A stretch of 64,000 nucleotides of DNA from Valencia hispanica (taxonomy: Eukaryota > Chordata > Actinopteri > Cyprinodontiformes > Valenciidae): assembly GCA_963556495.2 (NCBI GenBank), contig OY747713.1, forward strand, positions 3,153,821-3,217,820, in the 5' to 3' direction. Within the stretch, counting starts at the first letter, position 1; the number at the start of each line of letters is the position of its first letter. The position numbers and the translations under genes are program-made. Shown piece after piece: positions 18,766 to 64,000 of the stretch. The notes below the pieces were generated by a model that worked only from the letters and a program-made list of their open reading frames with translations, ran no database searches and had not been told where the DNA came from.

Positions 18766-21177
18766 GTGATAATCAAATTAATTTGTTTTGCCTCACAGAA
18801 ACTTGGTTGCAGCAGGAGGATTATGTCAGTATAAATGAGTCAACTCCTTCTAAATTTTCTCATTCCTAGAAATACTGAGCGCGGAGGAGGAGTTGCAACC
18901 ATTTTCCGTTCTGATTTACTAATTAGTCCCAGACCAATTGATAGCTACAGTTCTTTTGAACATCAAACACTTAATTTTCCTCATCCAAGTTGAAAAACAT
19001 TAAGACCATTTTTGTTTGTGGTTTTGTATCGTCCACCAGGCCCTTACTCTCAATTCTTGGATCAGATCTCACATTTTTTATCTGATTTAGTATTAAATAC
19101 TGATAGGGTTATTATAGTGGGGGACTTTAATATAGTCATGTGGATACTGAAAGTGATAGCCTAAATGCAGCCTTTAATGCTATTTTAGACTCAATTGGCT
19201 TTACTCAAAAAGTACAGGGATCGACCCACTCGGGTAAACACACTTTGGACCTTGTACTGACATACGGTATTGAGTGTGAGGAAATAACAGTCCACCCACA
19301 TAACCCGGTCCTGTCTGACCACTTCTTGATAACTTTTGAATTTACTTTAACTGACCATCTTAAATCTGAAAGAAAATTTAATTATAGAAGAGCTTTATCA
19401 GACAATGCTGGAACAATTTTTAAAGAATCTGTTCCATTCTTACTTTCCTCAGTGTCTCAGGTTAACACAGTGGATGGCAGCAATTCTATCTCTAACCCTT
19501 CAGAAATTGATGCTCTGGTTCACAGCTTTACGTCCTCATTGAGTTTGGCATTAAATAGTGTAGCCCCCTTAAAAAAGAAAGTAATTAGTCATAGCAGGTT
19601 GACTCTTTGGTTTAACGCAGAGTTGCGTACTTTAAAGCAGAATACTCGGAAGTTGGAGAGAAAATGGCGCTCTACACATCTAGAGGATTCCTATTTAACC
19701 TGGAATAACAGTCTACTGCTGTATAAAAAGACCCTTCGACAAGCTAGAACAGCATATTTTTCATCATTAATAGAGGCGAATAAAAACAATCCTAGGTTTC
19801 TTTTTAGTACAGTTGCCAAACTTACAGAAAGTCATAGCTCTGTTGAGCCAACTATTTCCCCAGCTCTTAGCAGTGATGATTTTATGGGATTCTTCATAAA
19901 TAAAATTAATTCTATTAAAAATAAAATCATTGGCATCCTCCCAAACATGATTACTTCTTCCTCAGTAAATGAGGCAGTATCGGAAAGAACTGTAGAACCT
20001 CATTTGGGCTTAGACTGTTTTGATTTAGTCGAGCTTTCGGAATTATCAAAAATATTAGCCTCATCTAAACCTTCAACTTGTATGTTGGACCCAATCCCAA
20101 CCAAATAATTTAAAGAAGTGTTCCATTTGGTTCCTGGCCCCATTTTGGATATGATGAATCTATCCTTAGTAAACGGATACGTACCACAGGAATTTAAAAT
20201 AGCTGTAATTAAACCTTTACTCAAGAAACCTTCCCTTGATCAAGATGACTTAGTGAATTACAGACCTATATCTAACCTTCCTTTCTTATCCAAAGTCCTT
20301 GAGAAAATTGTTGCTAATCAAGTCTGTGAGCATCTAAACAGTAACGAGCTGTTTGAAGAGTTTCAATCAGGTTTTAGAGCTCATCATAGCACTGAAACAG
20401 CACTGGTGAAGGTTACTAATGATATTCTCATGGCCTCAGATAATGGACTGGTGTCTGTTCTGGTTTTGTTAGATCTCAGTGCTGCTTTTGACACAGTCGA
20501 TCATAATATTCTCTTAGAAAGGCTTGAACATGTTGCAGGGATCAAAGGAACAGCACTAGGCTGGTTTAAATCATATTTGTCTGATAGATTCCAGTTTGTT
20601 CATCTAAATGATAAATCTTCTTCACTCTCAAGGGTTACTTGTGGAGTTCCACAGGGTTCTGTGCTTGGACCAATTCTGTTCACCATATATATGCTCCCAA
20701 TTGGTAGAATCATTAGACAGCATGGGATAAATTTCCACAGCTATGCCGATGATACACAACTATATTTATCCATTAATCCTGATGAACCCAGTCAGTTAGG
20801 TAGATTACAGGCATGTCTGGAAGACATAAAAACATGGATGAATCTAAACTTTTTGCTTTTAAATTCTGACAAGACAGAAGTTTCCGTCTTTGGACCAGAA
20901 GTTCTAAAACAGAAACTGATTAGTCAATCACTTCATCTGGATGGTATTAAATTGGCCCCCAGTAATAACGTAAAGATCCTCTGCGTTATTTTTGACCAAG
21001 ACTTGACATTTAAATCCCATATTAAACAGGTTTCTAGGATTTCTTTCTTTCACCTCCGGAATATTGCTAAAATTAGAAACATCCTGTCCAGGAGTGATGC
21101 TGAGAAACTAGTCCATGCATTTGTTACCTCAAGGCTGGACTACTGTAATTCTTTACTATCAGGTCGTCCACAAAATG
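18766..21177 (+). pseudogene. L2 ORF2: APE endonuclease and reverse transcriptase, truncated by insertion
   Basis: Endonuclease motifs in order: NLFCLTETWLQ (about 18780), GGGVATIFRSDL, FVVLYRPPGPY, VIIVGDFNI, TLDLVLTYG and LSDHFLITFEF (about 19313). Reverse transcriptase motifs: YRPISNLPFLSKVLEKIV, GFRAHHSTETAL, LLDLSAAFDTVDHN (motif A), GVPQGSVLGPILF (motif B), SYADDTQLY (motif C, catalytic YADD intact) and VIFDQDLTFKSHI. Frameshifts lie near 18868 and 19135, and one nonsense codon sits at 20106-20108. Otherwise the frame from 19140 to 21177 is continuous, so this copy is fairly young. The product would nick target DNA and prime reverse transcription. The last coding part and 3' tail are displaced to 26048-26795. 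Confidence 0.93.
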
Positions 21178-21357
21178 GAGCTAACAGGTTAGCTGAGGTT
21201 CAGGAGCAAGGCCACGCCTCAAACCCGCTTCATAAATCCTAATCAGCCTTAACTCGATTCACCCGGTACCACACGTCTGCTCTACATCTCTAATCCCACC
21301 AGGATACACATATAAACTCTGCCTGCCCTTCATCCCTCGTCTCTCGTTCGTTTTCAC
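21178..21357 (+). repeat. split direct repeat A1
   Basis: Identical as far as can be checked by eye to 24748-24927, at an offset of 3570. Starts GAGCTAACAGGTTAGCTGAG and ends TTCGTTTTCAC. It contains a TATA-like CATATAAACTC at about 21309 and so may carry the element's promoter. Confidence 0.9.
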
Positions 21358-21380
21358 GCGATCAGTTCGGACTTCCGCGT

Positions 21381-22001
21381 GTGCTCGCTCACCTCGCTCG
21401 ACGTTTTGCTCCGTTGTTCCCGGCACGGGCGTTCTCACGCTCGGCATCGATCCGTCTGAGGAGTTGCTCGGCGGACGTCCCGCATCTCCCGGGCCATCTC
21501 CCCGGCCATCTCCCCGGCATTTCGTCCGCCAACTCTCCCACCGTGTCAGGCTGTTTTCGAGCCAGCGGGACTTCAATCTGCCCCAGACAGATCTGTCTTC
21601 CACGCCGTTGGCACTCGAATCTCTTACCGGCTGACCTCGAAGCCGCTCCGGCCGAATTCCTCCTCACCTGTTTCCCCCTCTCCACTCCGGGATTTCCCTC
21701 GTGGGCTCGAGCCGTCACCTCGGCGCTCTCACCCCGCTGCTCCGGTCGGCCCAGCCCGGGCCCTTCCTTCTCCATCCCTCGCCGCCCGCACCGGTCTCCT
21801 GTACATCGTTCTAGAGCCTCCCCTCGAGCTCGGCGCTCCCCGATCGCCGCTTCGGGCCTCCCTGACTTGTCCGGCTGGACACTAGCAGGGCTCCAGCGCG
21901 CGCTCCGGGAAAGGGGTTTTCCCTTCAACCGCTCAGGGCCTTTAATCGAAACCTCTTTCGTGCTCAAAACGGCTCCAAAACAACACGTCCGATATCGATG
22001 A
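21381..22001 (+). pseudogene. Ngaro Gag-like ORF (partial)
   Basis: An open frame of about 206 codons starts 24 bp after A1, where the first ORF of Ngaro elements lies. The protein is rich in Pro, Ser, Arg and Ala and has little recognisable structure. A short stretch GLPDLSGWTLAGLQRALRER resembles a SAP-like helix pair (D-L-x-x-x-T-L-x-x-L-x-x-A-L-x-x-R-G), plausible for a nucleic-acid-binding Gag. GC content is much higher than in the flanking L2. The opposite strand is also open (21389-21967), which reflects base composition. The frame continues a little past the SAP-like motif and then enters AT-rich DNA that does not look like part of the element. Confidence 0.5.
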
Positions 22002-22740
22002 GCGTTTTGCTGGTATGTACGGCTTTTATTGGTATTAAATTAAACGAAGTACTGTTTTAACGGGAAGTAAGGGAGACGTCGCACTGTAGTGCTTAGCATT
22101 AATACTTAAATGAGCATTGTTACTAGCCTCCTGAAACGGACTGACTAACGTTAACACTGTCACGCCTGTGTGAAGATGCTTAAAACATGTCGTTAGCAAA
22201 TGTTCTGCAACAATCACATACATTAGGTAGGCTTATTCTTATCGGCACGTGTAATGCAGAATATTGAACTAATCTTACTAAAACTACCGTGGAGATAGTA
22301 CAGGGATGCAAACAGCGCGCTTTTCGGCGCCTCTAGCTTTTCACGTCAGTTTGGGGTGACTTGGGTCTGAGAGGGTCTGATTATAATTTCACAACGTCTT
22401 CTGAAGCCATTCCGTAGCTTAATGTGAGGGACAAAAGTCTATTTACATCATTAAATTTAAGTTTACGGAAACTCGTTTTCCCCCCTCTTCGGCCGTCAAT
22501 CATTTTCCATTCAGTATTCAAACAGCGCACGCGCCTCGTCCGGTTACAGCAGGATACACGGTAAAACTTCATCCACTATAATATTATATGTTATATTATA
22601 ATATGCTTTGAGCACATCATTCTGCACCCACGATGCGCATGCGCGCTTTGTGCGCTCTGTTTTTGAAGCGTTTCATATACTCCGTATATCGACCCCCCCC
22701 AAAATAATATCTTGCCACCCCCGTTTTTTTTAAAGCCTAG
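22002..22740. other. foreign block replacing the N-terminal half of the Ngaro reverse transcriptase
   Basis: AT-rich DNA with no retroelement motif. The portion 22295-22738 (ACAGCGCGCTTTTCGGCGCC to AGCTCCGCCACTG) resembles an unclassified repeat I associate with fish genomes, recalled rather than searched. The reverse-transcriptase coding that should lie here, before motif B, is absent. This implies an insertion coupled with a deletion. Confidence 0.5.
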
Positions 22741-22759
22741 CTCCGCCACTGCCCCCCTC

Positions 22760-23560
22760 CCTTCATTCAGTCTTCCGGCGCTTCTCCAGCGTCCGTCGGA
22801 AGGGTTCCTACTACTTTGCGGTCCAGCTCACCTTCGGCTGCAGGAGTAGTCCCAGGATTTCCAGTTCTCTTTACGAGACCCCGTGATGGGTACGGTTTAA
22901 TACTTAACACCTGCCTCACGTCCTTCACTCCCCCTCGGATGACTTCTTGGTCATCACCTCCACTTCTTCTCCACCTCGTTGAGGGCTTCATGCCCTCACT
23001 GAGGCTGCTTCCGACATAGGTGTCCCTCTTCCCGACGAGAAGACGGTGGGCCCCCTTACTACTTTCGAGTTCCTGGGCATCACCCTCGACTCATCCTCCA
23101 TCCAGGTTTCGCTGCTGTTTGGAGGTCCACCGTATCTCCCCGATCCGCTCTAACTTCCTCACAAATACGCGCTAAGAAACAGCTCCTATTGCTCTCGGGT
23201 CATCTTACCCACGCCGTCCGCATCATCCCCAGGGTCGGTCCTTCGTGTCCCTTCCGTCCGCTGCCGCTAGCGTGCCATGCCTCCACAATCAGCTCGCCCT
23301 CACCGAGCCCTGTCGTACAGAGATGCAGCTCTGGCACGATTTCCTCTTCCTGGAACAGCTGGTCCCCGGAGTTTGATTCCCTTCAGCCCCAGTCCACCCT
23401 CCCTTCCTCTGCTCCCCACGAGCTTTACCCCATCGTAATAGCAACCCTTCTTTTGGGGACACGACCTGTCGCAGAAATCGATCCTCATTCACTCCGATAA
23501 TGAAGCTGTTGTAGAAGTTAATAACAAAGAAATTCAGATCCTTAGCTCCTGCTGCAGACC
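22760..23560 (+). pseudogene. DIRS/Ngaro reverse transcriptase C-terminus and RNase H
   Basis: In shifting frames: YFAVQLTFGCRSSPRI (about 22810, motif B region), DDFLVITS (about 22941, the x-x-DD catalytic motif), DIGVPLPDEKTVGP then FEFLGITLDSS (about 23015-23095), the characteristic DIRS-group stretch. Then come LLLLSGHLTHAVRIIPR (about 23185) and LHNQLALTEPCRTEMQLWHD in the connection/RNase H region. Frameshifts and stops are frequent. It would copy the element's RNA. The N-terminal fingers and the first catalytic aspartate are missing because of the foreign block upstream. Confidence 0.75.
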
Positions 23561-23624
23561 TCAACCGGACTCCAGTCCCACAGTTTTCAGCCACCATCTT
23601 CATCTGACGCCGCAGCTCTACAAC

Positions 23625-24590
23625 CTCACCATCTTGCAGAACTTCATCGACAGCCTCTCACCCGGTACCCGCTCTGTTTACCTGTCCGGCTGGAACGCCT
23701 TCAAGGCCTTTCACGTAATGTATGGTCTCTTTCCCTTTTACTCCTTTGTTTATCTGCCAGTTCATCTCTCACTCGCATTCAATCCAAAAAATCCACATAT
23801 CCGCCATTAAATCTTATCTATCAGGAATCAGCTTCTTCATCAAGCTGGCAACAGGTAACCCCTGTCCAGCTCTCGACCATAGCCACGTTCTGATGTTTTT
23901 CGGAAAGGTCTTAAAAAGCTAGAACCTTCCGCCGCTCATCGCTTACCGCTTACCTCTGACCTCCTCACCCGTTGCAATCTCACGCTTCGTTCCGGTTACC
24001 TATCCCCCTTCATCGACCTAACTTCAGTCCATGCTCTTGCTCGCTTATTTCAGTTTCCCGATATGTTCTGAGTTGGCCCCTTCCTCTTCTAGACACGATC
24101 CTTCCATTCACCCATGTCTCTCAGACATTTAAATCCTTAGTCAGGACACCCTCATTTACACCCTACGTAGAAGTAAAACAGACCAGCTCGGCACCTCCGT
24201 CCGAATTCACTTATTCCGCCTCAGTTCCAGCCTCAGCCCCTAGAAACCCGTCACCTGCTACATTCAGCCTCTATCATCTGCTAACGCCTCTCCATTCAAC
24301 CCACTTCTCATTACCGAATCAGGTAGCTCCGCTACCCGGTTCTGGTTCATCAATCACTCCCACCAGATTACTCGCCGGTCCGGTATCTCCCCTGATTTTT
24401 ACTCCGGCCATTCAATCTGCAGGGGTACAGCTACCTCAGCAGCCAGGTCAGGGATATCAGACGACATCATCAAAATCTTAGGTCGGTTGTCCTCTTCAGC
24501 ATACCGAACCTACATTCGTAATCTACACAATCTGCGACGCGCTCATTCTCTTCTCTGCTAATCTCTCCGACAAGACCTTTTGGGGGTCCT
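23625..24590 (+). pseudogene. Ngaro tyrosine recombinase
   Basis: The N-terminal core-binding part is recognisable: QNFIDSLSPGTRSVYLSGWN then AFKAFH (about 23637), and later ISAIKSYLSGISFF (about 23803). The C-terminal catalytic part is at about 24407-24520: GHSICRGTATSAARSGISDD then IIKILGRLSSSAYRTYIRN. Compared with the usual H-x-x-R...G-R-W...Y pattern of this family, the arginine after HS-x is a cysteine and the tryptophan is a leucine. The nucleophilic tyrosine position is kept. The middle is frameshifted with several stops. The protein would recombine a circular DNA copy with the target. It is dead in this copy. Confidence 0.78.
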
Positions 24591-24747
24591 GAGCAGGCTC
24601 GGAAAGACGATTTCCCGAAGACTGCACCCCCACACTGAGTCTTCCTCCGGGTCTCCGGCGTTGCCTCTCCCCAGACCATTCAATTCAACATGCCTTCAAT
24701 AAAATGTTAAATTCTGAACCTGTAGCGTGGTCCTTGCTAGTGAAATG
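24582..24747 (+). repeat. split direct repeat B1
   Basis: Matches 25880-26047 from GGGGGTCCTGAGCAGGCTCG to TAGTGAAATG. Differences are a 2-bp indel in the G-run and a small change after CCCCCACACT (GAGT against CTTCTT). It contains AATAAAATG, a possible poly(A) signal. Confidence 0.9.
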
Positions 24748-24927
24748 GAGCTAACAGGTTAGCTGAGGTTCAGGAGCAAGGCCACGCCTCAAACCCGCTT
24801 CATAAATCCTAATCAGCCTTAACTCGATTCACCCGGTACCACACGTCTGCTCTACATCTCTAATCCCACCAGGATACACATATAAACTCTGCCTGCCCTT
24901 CATCCCTCGTCTCTCGTTCGTTTTCAC
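24748..24927 (+). repeat. split direct repeat A2
   Basis: Second copy of A1, abutting B1 directly. The join CTAGTG-AAATG-GAGC matches what a head-to-tail circle of the element would contain. Confidence 0.9.
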
Positions 24928-24950
24928 CCCTCCCTTCCCCTCCCTCTAGG

Positions 24951-25772
24951 TTCAGGGTTCCTGCCGACTCGCCTCTTTTCAGGGTTCCTGCCGACTCGCC
25001 TCTTTTCAGGGTTCCTGCCGACTCGCCTCTTCTTTTCAGGGTTCCTGCCGACTCGCCTCTTCTTTTCAGGGTTCCTGCCGACTCGCCTCTTCTGTTCAGG
25101 GTTCCTGCCGACTCGCCTCTTCTGTTCAGGGTTCCTGCCGACTCGCCTCTTCTGTTCAGGGTTCCTGCCGACTCGCCTCTTCTTTTCAGGGTTCCTGCCG
25201 ACTCGCCTCTTCTTTTCAGGGTTCCTGCCGACTCGCCTCTTCTTTTCAGGGTTCCTGCCGACTCGCCTCTTCTTTTCAGGGTTCCTGCCGACTCGCCTCT
25301 TCTTTTCAGGGTTCCTGCCGACTCGCCTCTTTTCAGGGTTCCTGCCGACTCGCCTCTTTTCAGGGTTCCTGCCGACTCGCCTCTTTTCAGGGTTCCTGCC
25401 GACTCGCCTCTTTTCAGGGTTCCTGCCGACTCGCCTCTTTTCAGGGTTCCTGCCGACCCTCGCCTCTTTTCAGGGTTCCTGCCGACCCTCGCCTCTTTTC
25501 AGGGTTCCTGCCGACCCTCGCCTCTTTTCAGGGTTCCTGCCGACCCTCGCCTTTCCTTCGCTGGGTCCTGCCGACCCTCGCCTTTCCTTCGCTGGGTCCT
25601 GCCGACCCTCGCCTTTCCTTCGCTGGGTCCTGCCGACCCTCGCCTTTCCTTCGCTGGGTCCTGCCGACCCTCGCCTTTCCTTCGCTGGGTCCTGCCGACC
25701 CTCGCCTTTCCTTCGCTGGGTCCTGCCGACCCTCGCCTTTCCTTCGCTGGGTCCTGCCGACCCTCGCCTTTA
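24951..25772 (+). repeat. GC-rich minisatellite inside the Ngaro element (27-31 bp units)
   Basis: About 28 tandem units around the core GGGTTCCTGCCGACTCGCC. They fall into ordered classes: 27-bp units ending CTCTTTT, 30-bp units ending CTTCTTTT or CTTCTGTT (about 25018-25330), 27-bp again, 29-bp units with GACCCTCGCC (about 25450-25550), and 31-bp units with TTCGCTGGGTCCTGCC (about 25555-25772). The long open frame on the minus strand is only a product of the array. Confidence 0.95.
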
Positions 25773-25879
25773 ACCCTCCCCTTTTTTCGCAGCATCAATC
25801 GGGCACAGCCTCCCTGTTCTGCGCTCCAGTTTACTCCTGTACCACCTCTTCCAACGTCTCTCTTTTAGGTTCTGTCTGG
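25773..25879. other. spacer between minisatellite and B2
   Basis: Part of the Ngaro 3' region. No motif was recognised. Confidence 0.5.
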
Positions 25880-26047
25880 GGGGGTCCTGAGCAGGCTCGG
25901 AAAGACGATTTCCCGAAGACTGCACCCCCACACTCTTCTTCTTCCTCCGGGTCTCCGGCGTTGCCTCTCCCCAGACCATTCAATTCAACATGCCTTCAAT
26001 AAAATGTTAAATTCTGAACCTGTAGCGTGGTCCTTGCTAGTGAAATG
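25880..26047 (+). repeat. split direct repeat B2
   Basis: Second copy of B1. It ends at AAATG (26043-26047), after which the host L2 sequence resumes with CCATTAAAAGCC. Confidence 0.9.
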
Positions 26048-26795
26048 CCATTAAAAGCCTTCAGTTGATCCAAAATGCTGCAGCAAGAGTTCTGATGAAT
26101 ATTAAAAAGAGAGATCACATTTCTCCTGTTTTAGCTTCCCTTCATTGGCTCCCTGTTAAATCCAGAATAGACTCTAAGATCCTTCTTCCATATAAAGCCC
26201 TTAATAATCAGCTCCATCATCCATCAGAGATCTGATTGGTCCATATGTTCCTAACAGAGCCCTTCGCTCTCAGACTGCAGGTTTACTTGTAGTTTCTAGG
26301 ATTTCTTAAAGTAGAATGGGAGGCAGATCTTTTAGTTATCAGGCTCCTCTCCTGTGGAACCAGCTCCCAGCTTTAGTCCGTGAGGCAGACACTCTGTTTA
26401 CAACTTTTTACTTTCTGTAACATAGAAAGTTCTCTTATATCAGATCTTCTGTTCCTTCTGTGTTTCTGCTCTGTCTTCTCAAACCCCCAGACGGTCGTGG
26501 CAGATGGCCGCTCCTACTGAGCCTGGTTCTGTTGGAGGTTTCTTCCTGTTAAATGGGAGTTTTTCGTCTCCACTGTCGCTACATGCTTGCTCAGTATGAG
26601 GGATTGCTGAGGTTGGAGTCTGCATCAACAGGACGCAGCCTCAAGTCAACGACTCGATGCAATCTGCTGGGATTCCTTGGATAGAAACTTTTAAAGTTAT
26701 TGGAATTTTTGAATTGAAATTACTTTTCCTGTAAAGCACCTTGAGATCTGTTGTGAATCTGTGCTATAGAAATAAACTGAATTGAATTGAATTAA
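26048..26795 (+). pseudogene. L2-type LINE, 3' portion resumed after the insertion
   Basis: Continues ORF2 with SLQLIQNAAARVLMNIKKRD then HISPVLASLHWLPVKSRI, followed by the 3' untranslated region and a tail of repeated TTGAA (AACTGAATTGAATTGAATT). Compared with the copy at 30358, about 340 bp between CACTCTGTTTAC and AACTTTTTACTTTC is deleted at 26402. The deletion removes the end of the coding region. Sequence and polarity match the 5' part ending at 21177, so both belong to one insertion. Confidence 0.92.
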
Positions 26796-27829
26796 TCAAC
26801 TAATCGCAGTTGCCACGGTTACACATTGTAACAACTGTCCAACAGTAAAAAAAAATCCTCCAGCTTTTCAGCATCCAGAACCAGAGAGAATAAAAGTCCA
26901 AACAGCAACGCCTCAACCAAAAAGAACCAATCAGAACCAACATAACAGAGCTGCTCCAACTCGTTGCCACCATGAGGCGCTATTTTAAAATGTAAACTGC
27001 TGTCTCTTTACGAATTCTTACTTTAACTCTGAGATGATCCAGATTGTTCCATGCAGATGTTGAAAGCTCAAAACGATAAAACATCAAGAGTTTCAGTATT
27101 TCATTCAAGCTTCCTGTTATCTATTAAAGTGTCACTCTCTCTCGCTCTCTTGCAGGCTGAAGGAATCACAGGCTCAACTCGACATGTTGTAGAAAACAGT
27201 TTCGTTATTTCTTTTTAAATTCCTTGATAGAGCTCTGCTTGATCTGAGTTCAGCTTTCAACACTGAGCTGATACCTAAAATAAAAATGTGAGTTTTCTTT
27301 CCTCCAGATCGTGTTGGGAGTGCGATCTGGGTTCACTGATCAGAAGTGGATTGGTTTCTTTATAAATCTGCAGCCAGCTGGTCTCTGGTCAGAGCCAAAC
27401 ATATTAATATATATATATCTCTTATGCATAAAATATACATATCTCCTTCACTCCTTTTTTTCAATAAATCTGCTGTGGTCTCTAGCTTAAATGAATGCCT
27501 TGTGAGTTGTTTCTGAAGGACAAAATGCTCTGGCGCTCCTGTTTCAGGAAGTTGCAGTTTGTTGGAGGAGTGGGTGGGGGGAAACGTCAGGATTACGAAT
27601 CTTACTCATTATTATTCACAATATGCAAACATCTTCCCTTTGATTGGCTAACAGCAATGCGACTCTCGTGCTGCGTATTAACAAACAACTAACTTAATTC
27701 GCTGGTGGTGTTCAAAGACAAATTCGAACAATTTCTTCCTCATTCTCTCTTTCTTGGGTAACAAATGCAACGCTGATGTGCTATCTCCACAAATAACACA
27801 AGCCCAAAACTGTTCCGCCATGTTGTGGA
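26796..27829. other. unannotated non-coding stretch
   Basis: A short ATATAT run lies near 27405. No gene or element could be supported. Confidence 0.35.
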
Positions 27830-27834
27830 GTTGC

Positions 27835-28528
27835 TAAGGGCTAGCTTCTACTATGCGAGTTGCTAACAGTTAGCCTCTACTAGCAGAGCTGCTAATGGTT
27901 AGCTTCTGCTAGCTGAGTAGCTAACAGTTAGCTTCTACTAGTAGAGCTGCTAATGGTTAGTTTCTGCTAGCTGAGGTGCTAATGGTTTGCTTCTACTAGC
28001 TTAGCTGCTAATGGTTAACTTCTGCTAGCTGAGTAGCTAAGAGTTAGCTTCTACTAGCAGAGCTGCTAATGGTTAGCTTCTACTAGCAGAGCTGCTAATG
28101 GTTAGCTTCTGCTAGCTGAGCTGCTAATGGTTAGCTTCTGCTAGCTGAGCTGCTAATGGTTAGCTTCTGCTAGCTGAGCTGCTAATGGTTAACTTCTGCT
28201 AGCTGAGTAGCTAACAGTTAGCTTCTACTAGCAGAGCTGCTAATGGTTAGCTTCTGCTAGCTGAGCTGCTAATGGTTAACTTCTGCTAGCTGAGCTGCTA
28301 ATGGATAGCTTCTGCTAGCTGAGTTGCTAACAGTTAGCTTTTACTACCAGAGCTGCTAACAGTTAGCTTTCTCTAGCTGAGTTGCTAACAGTTAGCTTCT
28401 ACTAGCAGAGCTGCTAACGGTTAGCTTTTTCTAGCTGAGTTGCTAACAGTTAGCTTCTACTAGCAGAGCTGCTAACGGTTATCTTGTTCTAGCTGAGTTG
28501 CTAACAGTTAGCTTCTACTAGCAGAAAT
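27835..28528 (+). repeat. 29-bp minisatellite rich in GTTAGC and GCTAGC
   Basis: About 24 units of a 29-bp repeat, GCTGCTAATGGTTAGCTTCT followed by GCTAGCTGA. Two main variants partly alternate: one with CTGCTAGCTGAG and one with CTACTAGCAGAG. Exact 29-bp spacing is seen at 28091, 28120 and 28149. Each unit holds the palindrome GCTAGC or CTAG, so single strands could fold. No coding frame. Confidence 0.93.
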
Positions 28529-30357: not shown

Positions 30358-31470
30358 TTCCACAAAATGCCATTAAAAGCCTTCAGTTGATCCAAAATGC
30401 TGCAGCAAGAGTTCTGATGAATATTAAAAAGAGAGATCACATTTCTCCTGTTTTGGCTTCCCTTCATTGGCTCCCTGTTAAATCCAGAATAGAATCTAAG
30501 ATCCTCCTTCTTACATATAAAGCCCATAATAATCAGCTACATCATCCATCAGAGATCTAATTGGTCCATATGTTCCTAACAGAGCCCTTTGCTCTCAGGC
30601 TGCAGGTTTACTTGTAGTTCCTAGGATTTCTAAAAGTAGAATGGGAGGCAGATCTTTTAGTTCTCAGGCTCCTCTCCTGTGGAACCAGCTCCCAGCTTTA
30701 GTCCGTGAGGCAGACACTCTGTTTACTTTTAAGGCCAGGCTTAAAACTTTCCTTTTTGATAAAGCTTATAGTTAGAGTGGCTAAGGTCATCCTGAGCTAT
30801 CTCTGTAGTTATGCTGCTATAGGCTTAGACTGCTGGAGGACAGACTTACCACTTCTCTTCACTCTGCTACTTTTCTCTCCTACTACTCTCCAGTTGTATT
30901 ATTTGCTGTTATTTCGACTGTTAACTTTGTTTTCTCTCAGTGTTTTTCTCTCCATAGAAGATATACCTGGTCTGGTATCCTGCTTGGCTGCAATGCCCTG
31001 TTGGACGGGGGGCATCGACTGGGATGATGCTCCCAGTAACTGAACATCCACGGTGTCCTGTTATCAACTTTTTACTTTCTGTAACATAGAAAGTTCTCTT
31101 ATATCAGATCTTCTGTTCCTTCTGTGTTTCTGCTCTGTCTTCTTGAACCCCCAGACGGTCGTGGCAGATGGCCGCTCCTACTGAGCCTGGTTCTGTTGGA
31201 GGTTTCTTCCTGTTAAAGGGGAGTTTTTCCTCTCCACTGTCGCTACATACTTGCTCAGTATGAGGGATTGCTGAGGTTGGAGTCTGCATCAACGGGATGC
31301 AACATCAAGTCAACGACTCGATGCAATCTGCTGGGATTCCTTGGATAGGAAACTTTTTAACTGATTGAATGTTTGAATGTTTTGAAATGACTTTTCCTGT
31401 AAAGCGCCTTGAGATGAAACATCTGTTGTAAATCGGTGCTATATTAAAATATTAAATTGTATTAAATTAT
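30358..31470 (+). pseudogene. 5'-truncated L2-type LINE copy
   Basis: Begins TCCACAAAATGCCATTAAAA and carries SLQLIQNAAARVLMNIKKRD, HWLPVKSRIESKILLLTYKA and, further on, a FKARLKTFLFDKAYS-like end of ORF2. The 3' untranslated region and an AT-rich tail end near ATTAAATTGTATTAAATT. It has the segment that is deleted from the copy at 26048-26795. This copy preserves the uninterrupted target word in which the Ngaro element sits elsewhere. Confidence 0.9.
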
Positions 31471-33360: not shown

Positions 33361-33624
33361 GAAGAAGAAGAAGAAGAAGAAGAAGAAGAAGAAGAAGAAG
33401 AAGAAGAAGAAGAAGAAGAAGAAGAAGAAGAAGAAGAAGAAGAAGAAGAAGAAGAAGAAGAAGAAGAAGAAGAAGAAGAAGAAGAAGAAGAAGAAGAAGA
33501 AGAAGAAGAAGAAGAAGAAGAAGAAGAAGAAGAAGAAGAAGAAGAAGAAGAAGAAGAAGAAGAAGAAGAAGAAGAAGAAGAAGAAGAAGAAGAAGAAGAA
33601 GAAGAAGAAGAAGAAGAAGAAGAA
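33361..33624 (+). repeat. perfect (GAA)88 trinucleotide microsatellite
   Basis: 264 bp of uninterrupted GAA. Long GAA/TTC tracts can form triplex DNA. The poly-Ser and poly-Lys open frames that cross it are artefacts. Confidence 0.99.
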
Positions 33625-42530: not shown

Positions 42531-42676
42531 CACCTGTTTTTAAATTAATCTGCAGAACTGACAGTAAAAATGTTGTTCCTAAAAACCCAAGAGGAGAACT
42601 GATGTGGCGGTGCCGAGGTATAAAACGTTGCTTTCGTATCGGTCCTGTGCTGTACAGAATACGGTAGACGGCCGGA

Positions 42677-44395
42677 ATTCAATCCAATCCAGTTTATTTC
42701 TATAGCGCCAATTCACAACAGATGTTTCGTCTCAAGACACTTTACAAGAAAAGTCGATTCAAGTCAATCATTCCAATCAGTTAAAAAGTTTCCTATTTAA
42801 GGAATCCCAGCAGATTGCGTCAGTCATTGGCGGGAGGTTGGGCCCCGTTGATGCAGACTTTCCAACCACAGCAATCCTTCAGCAATCCCTCATACTGAGC
42901 AAGCATGTAGCGACGGTGGAGAGGAAAAACTCCCCTTTAACAGGAAGAAACCTCCAACAGAACCAGGCTCAGTAGGAGCGGCCATCTGCCACGACCGTCT
43001 GGGGGTTTGAGAAGACAGAGCAGAAACACAGAAGGAACAGAAGATCCGATATAAGAGTACTTTCTATGTTACAGAAAGTAAAAAGTTGTTACGTCTATGT
43101 GTTGGTTATGCATGGCCTAATTACCCTAAGGAAAAAGTCGGCTACCAAAGGAATCTTATAGTATTTTGGGACAAATGTTGCAGAAAGTAAAAAGTTGATA
43201 ACAGGACACAGTGGATGTTCAGTTACTGGGAGCATCATCCCAGTCGATGCCCCCCGTCCAACAGGGCATTGCAGCCAAGCAGGATACCAGACCAGGTATA
43301 TCTTCTATGGAGAGAAAAACACTGAGAGAAAACAAGGTTAACAGTGGAAATAACAGCAAATAATACAACTGGAGAGTAGTAGGAGAGAAAAGTAGCAGAG
43401 TGAAGAAAAGTGGTAAGTCTGTCCTCCAGCAGTCTAAGCCTATAGCAGCATAACTACAGAGATAGCTCAGGATGACCTTAGCCACTCTAACTATAAGCTT
43501 TATCTAAAAGGAACGTTTTAAGCCTGGCCTTAAAAGTAAACAGAGTGTCTGCCTCACGGACTAAAGCTGGGAGCTGGTTCCACAGGAGAGGAGCCTGATA
43601 ACTAAAAGATCTGCCTCCCATTCTACTTTTAGAGATCCTAGGAACTACAAGTAAACCTGCAGTCTGAGAGCAAAGGGCTCTGTTAGGAACATATGGAACA
43701 ATCAGATCTCTGATGGATGATGTAGCTGATTATTATGGGCTTTATATGGAAGAAGGAGGATCTTAAATTCTATTCTGGATTTAACAGGGAGCCAAAGAAG
43801 GGAAGCTAGAACAGGAGAAATGTGATCTCTCTTTTTAATATTCATCAGAACTCTTGCTGCAGCATTTTGGATCAACTGAAGGCTTTTAATGGCATTTTGT
43901 GGACTTCCTGATAGTAAAGAATTACAGTAGTCCAGCCTTGAGGTAACAAATGCATGGACTAGTTTCTCAGCATCACTCCTGGACAGGATGTTTCTAATTT
44001 TAGCAATATTCCTCAGGTGAAAGAAGGAAATCCTAGAAACCTGTTTAATATGGGATTTAAATGTCAAGTCTTGGTCAAAAATAACACCGAGGTTCTTTAC
44101 GTTATTACTGGGGGCCAATTTAATGCCATCCAGATGAAGTGATTGACTAATCAGTTTCTGTTTAAGAACTTCTGGTCCAAAGACGGAAACTTCTGTCAGA
44201 ATTTAAAAGCAAAAAGTTTAGATTCATCCATGTTTTTATGTCTTCCAGACATGCCTGTAATCTACCTAACTGACTGGGTTCATCAGGATTTATGGATAAA
44301 TATAGTTGTGTATCATCGACATAACTGTGGAAATTTTTCCCATGCTGTCTAATGATTCTACCAACTGGGAGCTCTTGATCGGTAGCCACAGGTAG
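42677..44395 (-). pseudogene. 5'-truncated L2-type LINE copy
   Basis: On the minus strand, from 44395 downwards: VGRIIRQHGKNFHSYVDDTQ (the catalytic YADD is altered to YVDD), LNSD, then APSNNVKNLGVIFDQDLTFK, RISFFHLRNIAKIRNILSRS, LDYCNSLLSGSPQNAIKSLQ and SLLWLPVKSRIEFKILLL. The 3' untranslated region and tail end near AATTGGCGCTATAGAAATAA at about 42690. It is close kin of the long L2 at 17.9-26.8 kb and keeps the Ngaro target word uninterrupted near 43905. A 92-bp insertion sits in the 3' untranslated region at 43089-43180. Confidence 0.9.
43072..43197. repeat. 92-bp insert between 17-bp direct repeats inside L2
   Basis: CAGAAAGTAAAAAGTTG occurs at 43072-43088 and 43181-43197. The other L2 copies have it once. 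The 92 bp between (starting TTACGTCTATGTGTTGG) are absent from those copies. It may be a small retroposed sequence with target duplication. Confidence 0.7.
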
Positions 44396-53170: not shown

Positions 53171-53198
53171 GCCATATTGTTTCTGTCGATTCACGCCG

Positions 53199-53599
53199 AT
53201 TCACAACAGATGTCGTCTCAAGGCACTTAACAAGAAGTCATTTCAATACATTTATACAAACATTCCAATCAGTTAAAAAGTTTCCTATTTAAGGAATCCC
53301 AGCAGATTGCGTCAGTCATTGGCGTGAGGTTGGGCCCCGTTGATGCAGACTTTCCAACCACAGCAATCCTTCAGCAATCCCTCATACTGAGCAAGCATGT
53401 AGCGACGGTGGAGAGGAAAAACTCCCCTTTAACAGGAAGAAACCTCCAACAGAACCAGGCTCAGTAGGAGCGGCCATCTGCCACGACCGTCTGGGGGTTT
53501 GAGAAGACAGAGCAGAACACAGAAGGAACAGAAGATCTGATATAAGATAACTTTCTATGTTACAGAAAGTAAAAAGTTGATAACAGGACACAGTGGATG
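53199..53599 (-). mobile_element. L2 3' untranslated region copy
   Basis: Begins with inverted GATTCACAACAGATGTCGTC and CTCAAGGCACTTAACAAGAA and ends GTTGATAACAGGACACAGTG near 53595. It matches the 3' untranslated region of the L2 copy at 42.7-43.2 kb almost throughout, including GATTGCGTCAGTCATTGGCG, but without the 92-bp insert found there. Confidence 0.85.
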
Positions 53600-61399: not shown

Positions 61400-61588
61400 A
61401 TCCTAGGCAGGTTCGCAGGGTCAGTAACGTGAAAACTTTCAAAAGTGAAATGAATTCACCAGGTTGTCGTATCTCCTCACTTATATTCCTCCAGGCGAGC
61501 TCCTTTTTATTCCCGTCTCTGTAGAGAAAGCAGCTGGTGTCGTACAGCTCGGGTGATTAGCCACGGCCTTTAGCATTATTTCCTCCAT
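61400..61588 (-). pseudogene. MADF/Myb-SANT-like ORF remnant of the Harbinger element
   Basis: The minus-strand frame from ATG 61588 reads MEEIMLKAVANHP. A one-base shift then gives ELYDTSCFLYRDGNKKELAW then RNISEEI. The pattern HPELYD...K...AW..I resembles MADF (Adf-1 type Myb/SANT) domains, which Harbinger elements encode beside their transposase to help DNA binding. About 60 residues are visible, and the frameshift makes it dead. The start region is duplicated by an 82-bp tandem repeat. Confidence 0.6.
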
Positions 61589-61715
61589 GTTGAATGAATG
61601 AATTTTGCCGCACCTGACCCCGTGAACTGGGTCGGTGATTAGCCACGGCCTTTAGCATTATTTCCTCCATGTTGAATGAATGAATTTTGCCGCACCTGAC
61701 CCCGTGAACTGGGTC
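61552..61715. repeat. perfect 82-bp tandem duplication
   Basis: 61552-61633 and 61634-61715 are the same 82 bp (GGTGATTAGCCACGGCCTTT to GTGAACTGGGTC). It covers the start of the MADF-like remnant. Confidence 0.95.
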
Positions 61716-63402: not shown

Positions 63403-64000
63403 ATGGGGAAGACTGCTGACCTGACAGCAGAAAACCATCATTGACCCCAAAAAGGAGGGAAAGCCTCAGAAGGTCATTGCAAAAACAAGTTGGATGTTCC
63501 CAAAGAGCTGTATCAAAGCACATTATTGGAAAGTTATGTGGAAGGAAAAGGTGCAGAAGCAGCAGGGATGAGTGCAGCCTGGAGATGATTGTCAGGAAAA
63601 GTGTTGGGGACCTTCACAAGGAGCGAACTGAGGCTGGAGTTAGAGCATCAAGAGCCGCCACACACAGACGGATCCTGGACATGAGCTTCACACGTCCTGT
63701 TCCTCTAGTCCTGGACATGAGCTTCACATGTCCTATTCCTCTAGTCCTGGACATGAGCTTCACACGTCCTGTTCCTCTAGTCCTGGACATGGGCTTCACA
63801 CGTCCTGTTCCTCTAGTCCTGGACATGAGCTTCACATGTCATATTCCTCTAGTCCTGGACATGAGCTTCACATGTCCCGTTCCTCTAGTCCTGGACATGA
63901 GCTTCACATGTCCTGTTCCTCTAGTCCTGGACATGAGCTTCACATGTCCCGTTCCTCTAGTCCTGGACATGAGCTTCACACGTCCTGTTCCTCTAGTCCT
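63403..64000 (+). pseudogene. Tc1-like transposase, N-terminal part, ending in amplified repeats
   Basis: MGKTADLTAEN, then frameshifts; KTIID..KKEGKPQKVIAKT reads as the first HTH. SRRDECSLEMIVRKSVGDLH, KERTEAGVRASRAATHRRIL corresponds to the linker and second HTH. From 63675 the coding sequence becomes a 36-bp tandem repeat (LDMSFTRPVPLV per unit), so the catalytic domain is not reached within the window. Already broken before the repeat. Confidence 0.75.
63675..64000 (+). repeat. 36-bp minisatellite derived from transposase codons
   Basis: Nine units of CTGGACATGAGCTTCACACG then TCCTGTTCCTCTAGTC, with starts at 63675, 63711, 63747 and every 36 bp after. They vary by a few transitions (CACG/CATG, CCTG/CCCG/CTAT). 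The array continues beyond the window. Confidence 0.96.

What the first reader, a model, noticed from the sequence alone, without database searches (positions are those of the whole stretch)
21178..26047. Ngaro-type tyrosine-recombinase retroelement with complete split direct repeats
The A1-coding-B1-A2-B2 order is fully readable, with matching repeat pairs of 180 bp and about 165 bp and remnants of Gag, DIRS-group reverse transcriptase, RNase H and a tyrosine recombinase. These elements have no LTRs of the usual kind and no integrase, and are often missed by annotation pipelines. An element with all four repeat parts in place is a good reference for defining the family in this fish.
Basis: partly seen in the sequence, partly recalled or inferred. 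Interest (0 to 1): 0.75.

Follow-up and report, generated by a model that had tools for sequence, protein, structure and literature searches.

The report
Defective fish Ngaro retroelement, copied in trans
This is one copy of a broken family of tyrosine-recombinase retroelements in an animal genome (probably a fish): the copies compared share the same damaged enzyme genes but keep their end-repeats, so the family most likely spread by borrowing enzymes from intact relatives, and its copies record where and how such elements insert.

Summary
In detail: A1 and A2 are identical (180/180), B1 and B2 nearly so, in the order A1-internal-B1-A2-X-B2, inside a LINE whose frame rejoins exactly across the insertion (no target duplication). 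The class fits: the coding remnants match RT/RNase H and tyrosine-recombinase frames of a relative with the same repeats in the same genome (L040); no integrase, methyltransferase or inverted repeats were found.

The conclusion needs correcting: this is no reference copy. All 16 copies compared (window included) share a TGA in the RT region, loss of a recombinase arginine and, whole or in part, a foreign insert; 54 of 58 close RT matches have a frame of the same truncated length. The family amplified while already broken, most likely in trans.

Further results: (1) insertion at TWAA^AT, element bases right of the cut at the left end (ATG, 32 of 33 ends), target bases at the right end; (2) two complementary half-elements, A-X-B (5 of 20 loci) and A-I-B (2 of 20); (3) B1 and B2 match each other within each copy at two polymorphic sites, so the repeats are re-copied from each other.

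The parts
20109..21174 (+). Interrupted host LINE (RVT_1), part upstream of the insertion
   Evidence: RVT_1 E=5.2e-37 for 20109-21176; joined flanks stay open for 418 aa and read ...LLSGRPQNAIKSLQLIQNAAARVL... across the site
21175..21357 (+). Repeat A1 (183 bp counted from the element's 5' end ATGGAGC)
   Evidence: no A1/A2 diagnostic difference inside the repeat (12 A1, 14 A2)
21311..21316 (+). TATAAA in A1, putative promoter, so RNA would start near the end of A1 (inferred)
21358..21934 (+). I1: 5' remnant, about 67% DNA identity to L040; gag-like by position only
21935..22758 (+). Foreign segment of unknown origin, in place of about 898 bp of L040; marker of the non-autonomous subfamily
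   Evidence: no match to L040 in this stretch; its core 22001-22740 has 40 scored matches (window included, 102 candidates), all 94% or more, and no match in L039-L042
22759..23346 (+). RT remnant: DDFLVIT, stop at 22980, then GVPLPDEKTVGP..FLGITLDS
   Evidence: tblastn with the L040 721-aa frame, E=2e-49; TGA at that place in 16 of 16 copies
23448..23528 (+). RNase H remnant (HSDNEAVVEVNNK; named by its place after RT and recalled likeness)
   Evidence: tblastn E=6e-19 with the L040 721-aa frame
23529..24581 (+). Tyrosine-recombinase remnant, frames broken; L040's FLRCSE reads FPICSE, HxxR stretch disturbed, AYRTYIR kept
   Evidence: tblastn E=2e-161 and 1e-47 with the L040 424-aa frame (the first match runs on through B1 into A2); Ile codon in place of the Arg in 16 of 16 copies
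24582..24744 (+). Repeat B1, with AATAAA at 24698
24737..24751 (+). B1-A2 junction CTAGTGAA^ATGGAGC: the sequence expected of the joined ends of a circular copy
   Evidence: found within 2 mismatches in the 13 of 20 fetched loci that carry both B1 and A2
24745..24927 (+). Repeat A2
24928..25879 (+). X: spacer between A2 and B2; 30/31-bp tandem array at 24951-25771
   Evidence: X is 331-1483 bp in 18 other copies and also present in L040
25880..26044 (+). Repeat B2, with AATAAA at 25998; element ends at GTGAA
26045..26790 (+). Continuation of the host LINE, beginning with the target's own ATG
   Evidence: paralogous empty site in the same window at 43640-44142 (minus strand) reads ...CCACAAAATGCCATTAAAAG...

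Best explanation
21175-26044 is one insertion of a non-autonomous Ngaro subfamily. A once-complete element lost part of its gag/RT-N coding to an unrelated 824-bp segment and further RT, RNase H and recombinase coding to deletions and stops, but kept A1, B1-A2, X and B2 (shown). Its RNA, started in A1 and ended in B2 (inferred from TATAAA and AATAAA), is reverse transcribed by the enzymes of relatives with open frames (inferred); the B1-A2 junction serves as template to restore the missing ends and give a circle (inferred; published model for the group). A relative's tyrosine recombinase then joins the circle's junction GTGAA^ATGGAGC to a TWAA^AT site without target duplication (site shown; enzyme inferred).
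For: Shared breakage: TGA at window 22980 in 16 of 16 copies (window included; in L011 a further frameshift lies before it), internal divergence between copies median 2.1%. Of 58 genome matches at 93% or more to the 56-aa RT piece (window included), 54 have an open frame of the same 56 aa; the others have 49, 59, 67 and 82 (counted by hand; 150 of 297 candidates scored). Ile codon in place of L040's FLRCSE arginine in 16 of 16. Foreign segment core in 40 scored places. Helper candidates: L040 has the same A1-I-B1-A2-X-B2 order, A 92.3 and 93.4%, B 91.6 and 92.8% identical to the window's, open frames of 721 aa (RVT_1 E=1e-8) and 424 aa (Phage_integrase E=1e-6); other RT matches lie in open frames up to 851 aa. 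Integration: no duplication in the window, L016, L019, L025 or L027 by paralogous empty sites; -2=A in 18 of 19 left ends (p=1e-8), +1=A and +2=T in 16 of 21 right ends each. Repeat renewal: B1=B2 within the copy at two polymorphic sites, 14 of 14 and 13 of 13. Age: A1/A2 plus B1/B2 divergence median 0.89% in 12 full copies, window 0.88%.
Against: Loci were chosen for an A repeat 100% identical to the window's, which favours young copies. One empty-site comparison (L022, satellite units, the best ones about 91-93% identical) shows one or two bases not explained by the simple rule, and those for L021 are too diverged to read (its output was cut). No expression, circle or polymorphism data.
Confidence: 0.85

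Rival explanations
1. A once-active autonomous Ngaro copy that decayed in place after insertion.
For: Many stops and frameshifts in the coding part; copies also carry private indels.
Against: The same TGA and the same arginine loss occur in 16 of 16 copies at different places, and the foreign segment in 40 scored places, while repeats within a copy differ by only about 0.9%: most of the damage is older than the insertions.
Confidence: 0.03
2. An LTR retrotransposon, or four repeats produced by assembly duplication.
For: Direct repeats; RT of the RVT_1 family.
Against: Recombinase (Phage_integrase) in L040 and no rve match there; of the 120 listed of 763 RT relatives, none shows PF00665, two show PF13495 plus PF00589 and three PF13495 alone in the same chain; repeat order A-B-A-B; no target duplication; the same order at 11 of 20 fetched loci.
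Confidence: 0.01
3. The full element is a joint of two units, [A-I-B] and [A-X-B], which the recombinase can separate on a circle at its two B-A junctions and integrate apart, so that the half-elements are independent insertions. (This concerns the half-elements and can hold together with the best explanation.)
For: Both halves occur alone with clean ends: A-X-B in 5 of 20 and A-I-B in 2 of 20 fetched loci; L027 (A-I-B) sits precisely in a satellite unit whose own sequence supplies the TTAA^ATG site. X arrays of the five A-X-B copies differ from each other, so they are not copies of one recent A-X-B source.
Against: Ordinary recombination between A1 and A2, or between B1 and B2, after insertion gives the same products; sequence alone cannot separate the two. 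Solo A-B forms were ascribed to recombination of 5' and 3' repeats in Cafeteria (PMC8547959).
Confidence: 0.3

Closest known systems
Ngaro retrotransposons (A1-[ORFs]-B1A2B2; zebrafish, Xenopus, Cafeteria, fungi)
   Same: Split direct repeats, RT/RNase H followed by tyrosine recombinase (remnants here), no methyltransferase; repeat sizes alike (Xenopus DIRS-53_XT A 236 bp, B 152 bp, PMC9210276, passages seen); solo A-B forms known (PMC8547959, section 11 read).
   Different: No coding capacity; an 824-bp foreign segment; a 0.3-1.5 kb tandem array X between A2 and B2 (also in L040); an A-I-B half-form besides A-X-B; no SGNH hydrolase match in L040's four tested frames.
Ngaro type 2b of Cafeteria burkhardae (ORF1 deleted; PMC8547959, section 11 read)
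   Same: Deletion variant of a Ngaro element present in several copies.
   Different: That variant is described as a deletion covering ORF1; here RT, RNase H and recombinase remnants are all broken and foreign DNA was taken up.
DIRS1-like retrotransposons (circular-junction model, PMC3266345, passages seen)
   Same: Integration between a 3-bp circle junction and a like site, without target duplication.
   Different: DIRS1-like elements have inverted terminal repeats and a methyltransferase; here direct split repeats. The target need not be identical to the junction (ATG exactly at 7 of 21 right ends).
Non-autonomous Cryptons of medaka and Rhodnius (PMC3212892, passages seen)
   Same: Defective tyrosine-recombinase elements, described there as much more abundant than autonomous ones.
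   Different: Cryptons are DNA transposons without RT or long repeats.

Membership tests
Ngaro | Split direct repeats A1-internal-B1-A2-B2 | tested here: met
   with an added spacer X between A2 and B2
Ngaro | RT and RNase H of the tyrosine-recombinase retroelement kind | tested here: met
   Remnants only: tblastn E=2e-49 and 6e-19 to L040, some of whose RT relatives are fused to recombinase domains. RNase H itself gave no Pfam match in L040; it is named by place and recalled likeness (weak RVT_3 match, below cut-off, in relative P0211).
Ngaro | Tyrosine recombinase in place of rve integrase | tested here: met
   Remnant E=2e-161 to the L040 424-aa frame, which matches Phage_integrase E=1e-6 and, weakly, Cre E=0.015. 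In the window it is broken.
Ngaro | No methyltransferase domain | tested here: met
   No such Pfam match in the L040 frames at E<=0.1; 116 nt lie between the RT frame and the recombinase frame
Ngaro | No target-site duplication | tested here: met
Ngaro | RT/recombinase fall in the Ngaro clade of a tree with named references | not testable with these tools
   No reference named Ngaro appeared in the lists; P0211 ('TPA_exp: polyprotein', Danio rerio, 62% identity) may be one, but the record does not say so
DIRS1-like | Inverted terminal repeats | tested here: not met
   0 inverted pairs of 20 nt or more in 20600-26800
PAT | Methyltransferase with split direct repeats | tested here: not met
   Repeats fit, methyltransferase not found
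LTR retrotransposon | Two LTRs, rve integrase, target duplication | tested here: not met
Autonomous element | Open gag, RT/RNase H and recombinase frames | tested here: not met

The most novel reading that the evidence does not exclude
The crossover is one-sided. In 12 of 12 copies whose right-hand target triplet is not ATG and whose left end is present, the left junction carries the element's ATG and the right junction other bases (the target's own in the three tested by empty sites), so both junctions switch at the same bond (GTGAA^ATG) and no mixed patch is seen; L028 (left ATA, right ATG) is the one possible exception. Tyrosine-recombinase sites typically have a 6-8 bp central segment (passage in PMC3212892); strands cut at its two edges (recalled) should leave either outcome about equally often. 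The pattern fits a single-strand exchange resolved by replication, as in integron cassettes (recalled), or strongly directional repair. A circle with two junctions could also be resolved into A-I-B and A-X-B circles that integrate apart.
Probability: 0.2. Interest if true: 0.7.

Novelty: new variant of a known kind. Interest (0 to 1): 0.45.

Why it matters
The replication and integration of tyrosine-recombinase retroelements is known mainly as a model (PMC5633606 calls the DIRS-1 model not fully proven; passage seen). A young, multi-copy family with dozens of readable junctions, empty sites in repeats and two complementary half-forms makes that model testable from sequence: where the cut lies, which bases come from the element, and whether B1-A2 renews the ends. 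A family with broken enzymes that spread anyway suggests that the repeats are enough for mobility in trans. In the held papers, the phrases 'nonautonomous/non-autonomous/defective DIRS', 'nonautonomous/non-autonomous Ngaro' and 'DIRS-like non-autonomous' occur in none; Repbase and subscription papers were not searched.

Tried and rejected
Pfam on ten pieces of the window: the LINE gave RVT_1; the element's own pieces gave nothing usable, so homology was shown through the relative L040. A Pfam 'Extensin' match of the X array is low-complexity and was set aside. PDB search with the window's recombinase piece gave one chance-level match. That the A-X-B copies are one recent lineage was rejected because their X arrays differ. 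A 7-bp deletion in A1 of L011 and L025 was not used: it lies in a short direct repeat and the two copies have different B haplotypes. A genome-wide count of full, A-I-B and A-X-B forms failed because the search machine was busy. No Rfam match at gathering score and no tRNA in the window.
Full report
Observation. The four repeats are present as described. A1 and A2 are identical, B1 and B2 nearly so, and the order is A1-internal-B1-A2-X-B2. X, between A2 and B2, is 952 bp and mostly a 30/31-bp tandem array. The element sits inside a LINE reverse-transcriptase gene (RVT_1 E=5.2e-37). Joining the two flanks gives an uninterrupted 418-aa frame, and a second LINE copy in the same window (43640-44142, minus strand, 95.8% identical) shows the empty site ...CCACAAAATG|CCATTAAAAG... 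with nothing gained or lost.

Genome context. The window lies in a 1.29-Gb assembly of 29 contigs, unnamed. The A repeat has 454 candidate places; the 40 that were scored (the window's own two included) are all 100% identical over 180 bp. Eleven of the 20 hold the whole A-I-B-A-X-B order (some with internal deletions, e.g. L015, L020), two lack the 5' end (L013 runs into N, L024 starts inside the foreign segment), five hold only A-X-B (L009, L016, L018, L022, L023) and two only A-I-B (L026, L027). Full elements offer two A repeats to the search and so may be over-sampled relative to halves.

What the coding part is. Pieces of the window give no usable Pfam match by themselves. The RT piece 22983-23150 finds 150 scored places in the genome (297 candidates): 58 at 93% or more, intermediates between about 60 and 92%, and many at 68-80% over about residues 1-44, a number of them in open frames of several hundred and up to 851 aa. 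One of these, L040, is itself a complete A1-I-B1-A2-X-B2 element; its A repeats are 93.4 and 92.3%, its B repeats 92.8 and 91.6% identical to the window's. Its 721-aa frame matches RVT_1 (E=1e-8), its 424-aa frame Phage_integrase (E=1e-6), and the latter weakly matches Cre (E=0.015). Most of the closest relatives that bear names are fish proteins (120 of 395 and 120 of 763 listed; some of the best are unnamed); some join RT and recombinase in one chain (P0187, P0190). tblastn of L040's frames places RT, RNase H and recombinase remnants in the window in that order. No methyltransferase, SGNH hydrolase or rve match was found in the four L040 frames tested at E<=0.1.

What is broken, and when. 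Relative to L040, an 824-bp unrelated segment (21935-22758) replaces about 898 bp. The 15 other copies compared carry the segment's core too: 12 over its whole length, L025 with a gap, L024 and L013 in part (5' end missing or N). The stretch from GITLDS to HSDNEA is 543 nt in L040 and 414-420 nt in 14 of 16 copies (263 in L015, 367 in L025: further deletions). All 16 copies carry TGA at window 22980; in L011 a frameshift before it takes it out of that frame. All 16 have an Ile codon where L040's FLRCSE has Arg. 54 of the 58 close RT matches have an open frame of 56 aa; the others have 49, 59, 67 and 82. The segment's core has 40 scored matches, all 94% or more, among 102 candidates, and none in L039-L042. 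Most of the damage therefore preceded amplification; private indels were added later. Repeat divergence within copies is 0.59-1.75%, median 0.89%, in 12 full copies; at recalled vertebrate neutral rates of 0.35-1 x 10^-8 per site and year this is roughly 0.4-1.3 million years. The loci were chosen for an identical A repeat, so this is the young end of the family. L040's own repeats differ more (97.8% over 185, 95.8% over 166), so that copy looks older than the burst.

How it inserts. Aligning both ends of the copies on the element gives a left end ATG|GAGCTAAC in 18 of 19 (L028 has ATA) and a right end ...GTGAA in 20 of 21 (L018 has GTTAA). A further 14 left ends from 80-base stretches are ATG|GAGC in 14 of 14 (2 of the 16 stretches were B1-A2 junctions). 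Over all 33 left ends the target has T at -4 in 29, A or T at -3 in 31, A at -2 in 29 and A at -1 in 24; at the right, A at +1 and T at +2 in 16 of 21 each, G at +3 in 9 of 21, and the whole ATG in 7 of 21 (background A 0.32, T 0.32, G 0.18). Paralogous empty sites for L016, L019 and L025 show that the right-hand bases are the target's and that the left ATG (or its G) comes from the element; L027 and the window have ATG in the target too; L022 (satellite units) differs by one or two bases and L021's comparisons are too diverged. In the 12 informative copies the switch always lies at the same bond. The B1-A2 junction inside the element is the same GTGAA^ATGGAGC, as expected if the circle's junction is the recombining site.

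How the repeats are renewed. Across copies A1 and A2 show no diagnostic difference within the repeat and diverge right after it; the same holds for B1 and B2 and the bases before them. Two sites in B are polymorphic between copies, and B1 and B2 of one copy agree at both, 14 of 14 and 13 of 13 (one gap); 25 other variants occur in one repeat only, as expected of changes after insertion. Variants have therefore passed between the repeats at least twice. One of the sites lies about 40 bp upstream of AATAAA, so the copied stretch is longer than the part expected to be missing from the RNA (inference). X arrays differ in length (331-1483 bp, 18 copies) and in unit order between copies, as expected from slippage.

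Literature, as seen. PMC8547959: passages and section 11 (A1-[ORFs]-B1A2B2, solo A-B repeats, ORF1-deleted type 2b). PMC9210276, PMC4157794, PMC3266345, PMC3212892, PMC3783388, PMC5633606: passages only. PMC3266345 gives the 3-bp circular-junction model without target duplication for DIRS1-like elements; PMC5633606 states that circular DIRS-1 cDNA was found and that the replication model is not fully proven. The original Ngaro papers (Goodwin and Poulter) were not seen.

Verdict. The structure is real and the class fits; it is a non-autonomous member most likely moved in trans. The value lies in the family: a clean record of insertion sites, half-elements and repeat renewal for a class whose integration is poorly tested.

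Noticed in passing
window 33361-33624: A perfect GAA array of 88 copies.
   Followed up: no
window 27828-28525 and 63673-64000: Tandem arrays of 29/58 bp and 36 bp; the latter reaches the window end.
   Followed up: no
window 61552-61715: An 82-bp unit present twice, 100% matches.
   Followed up: no
window 26043-26794, 30359-31469, 42676-44372, 53194-53599: Several copies of LINE stretches like those flanking the element, 85-98% identical.
   Followed up: partly
L022 and L027: Two half-elements sit in arrays of a satellite of about 175 bp and use an ATAAA or TTAA site within the unit.
   Followed up: partly
L011, X region: 47 identical 30-bp units in a row, a local homogenisation unlike the mixed arrays of most other copies.
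   Followed up: no
window 21935-22758: The foreign segment has no known origin; its right end ...CCTAGCTCCGCCACTG resembles the end of a hAT-like DNA transposon (recalled, not tested).
   Followed up: no
G000, RT matches: A more distant group of relatives, 68-80% identical over about 44 residues, a number of them in long open frames (up to 851 aa).
   Followed up: partly
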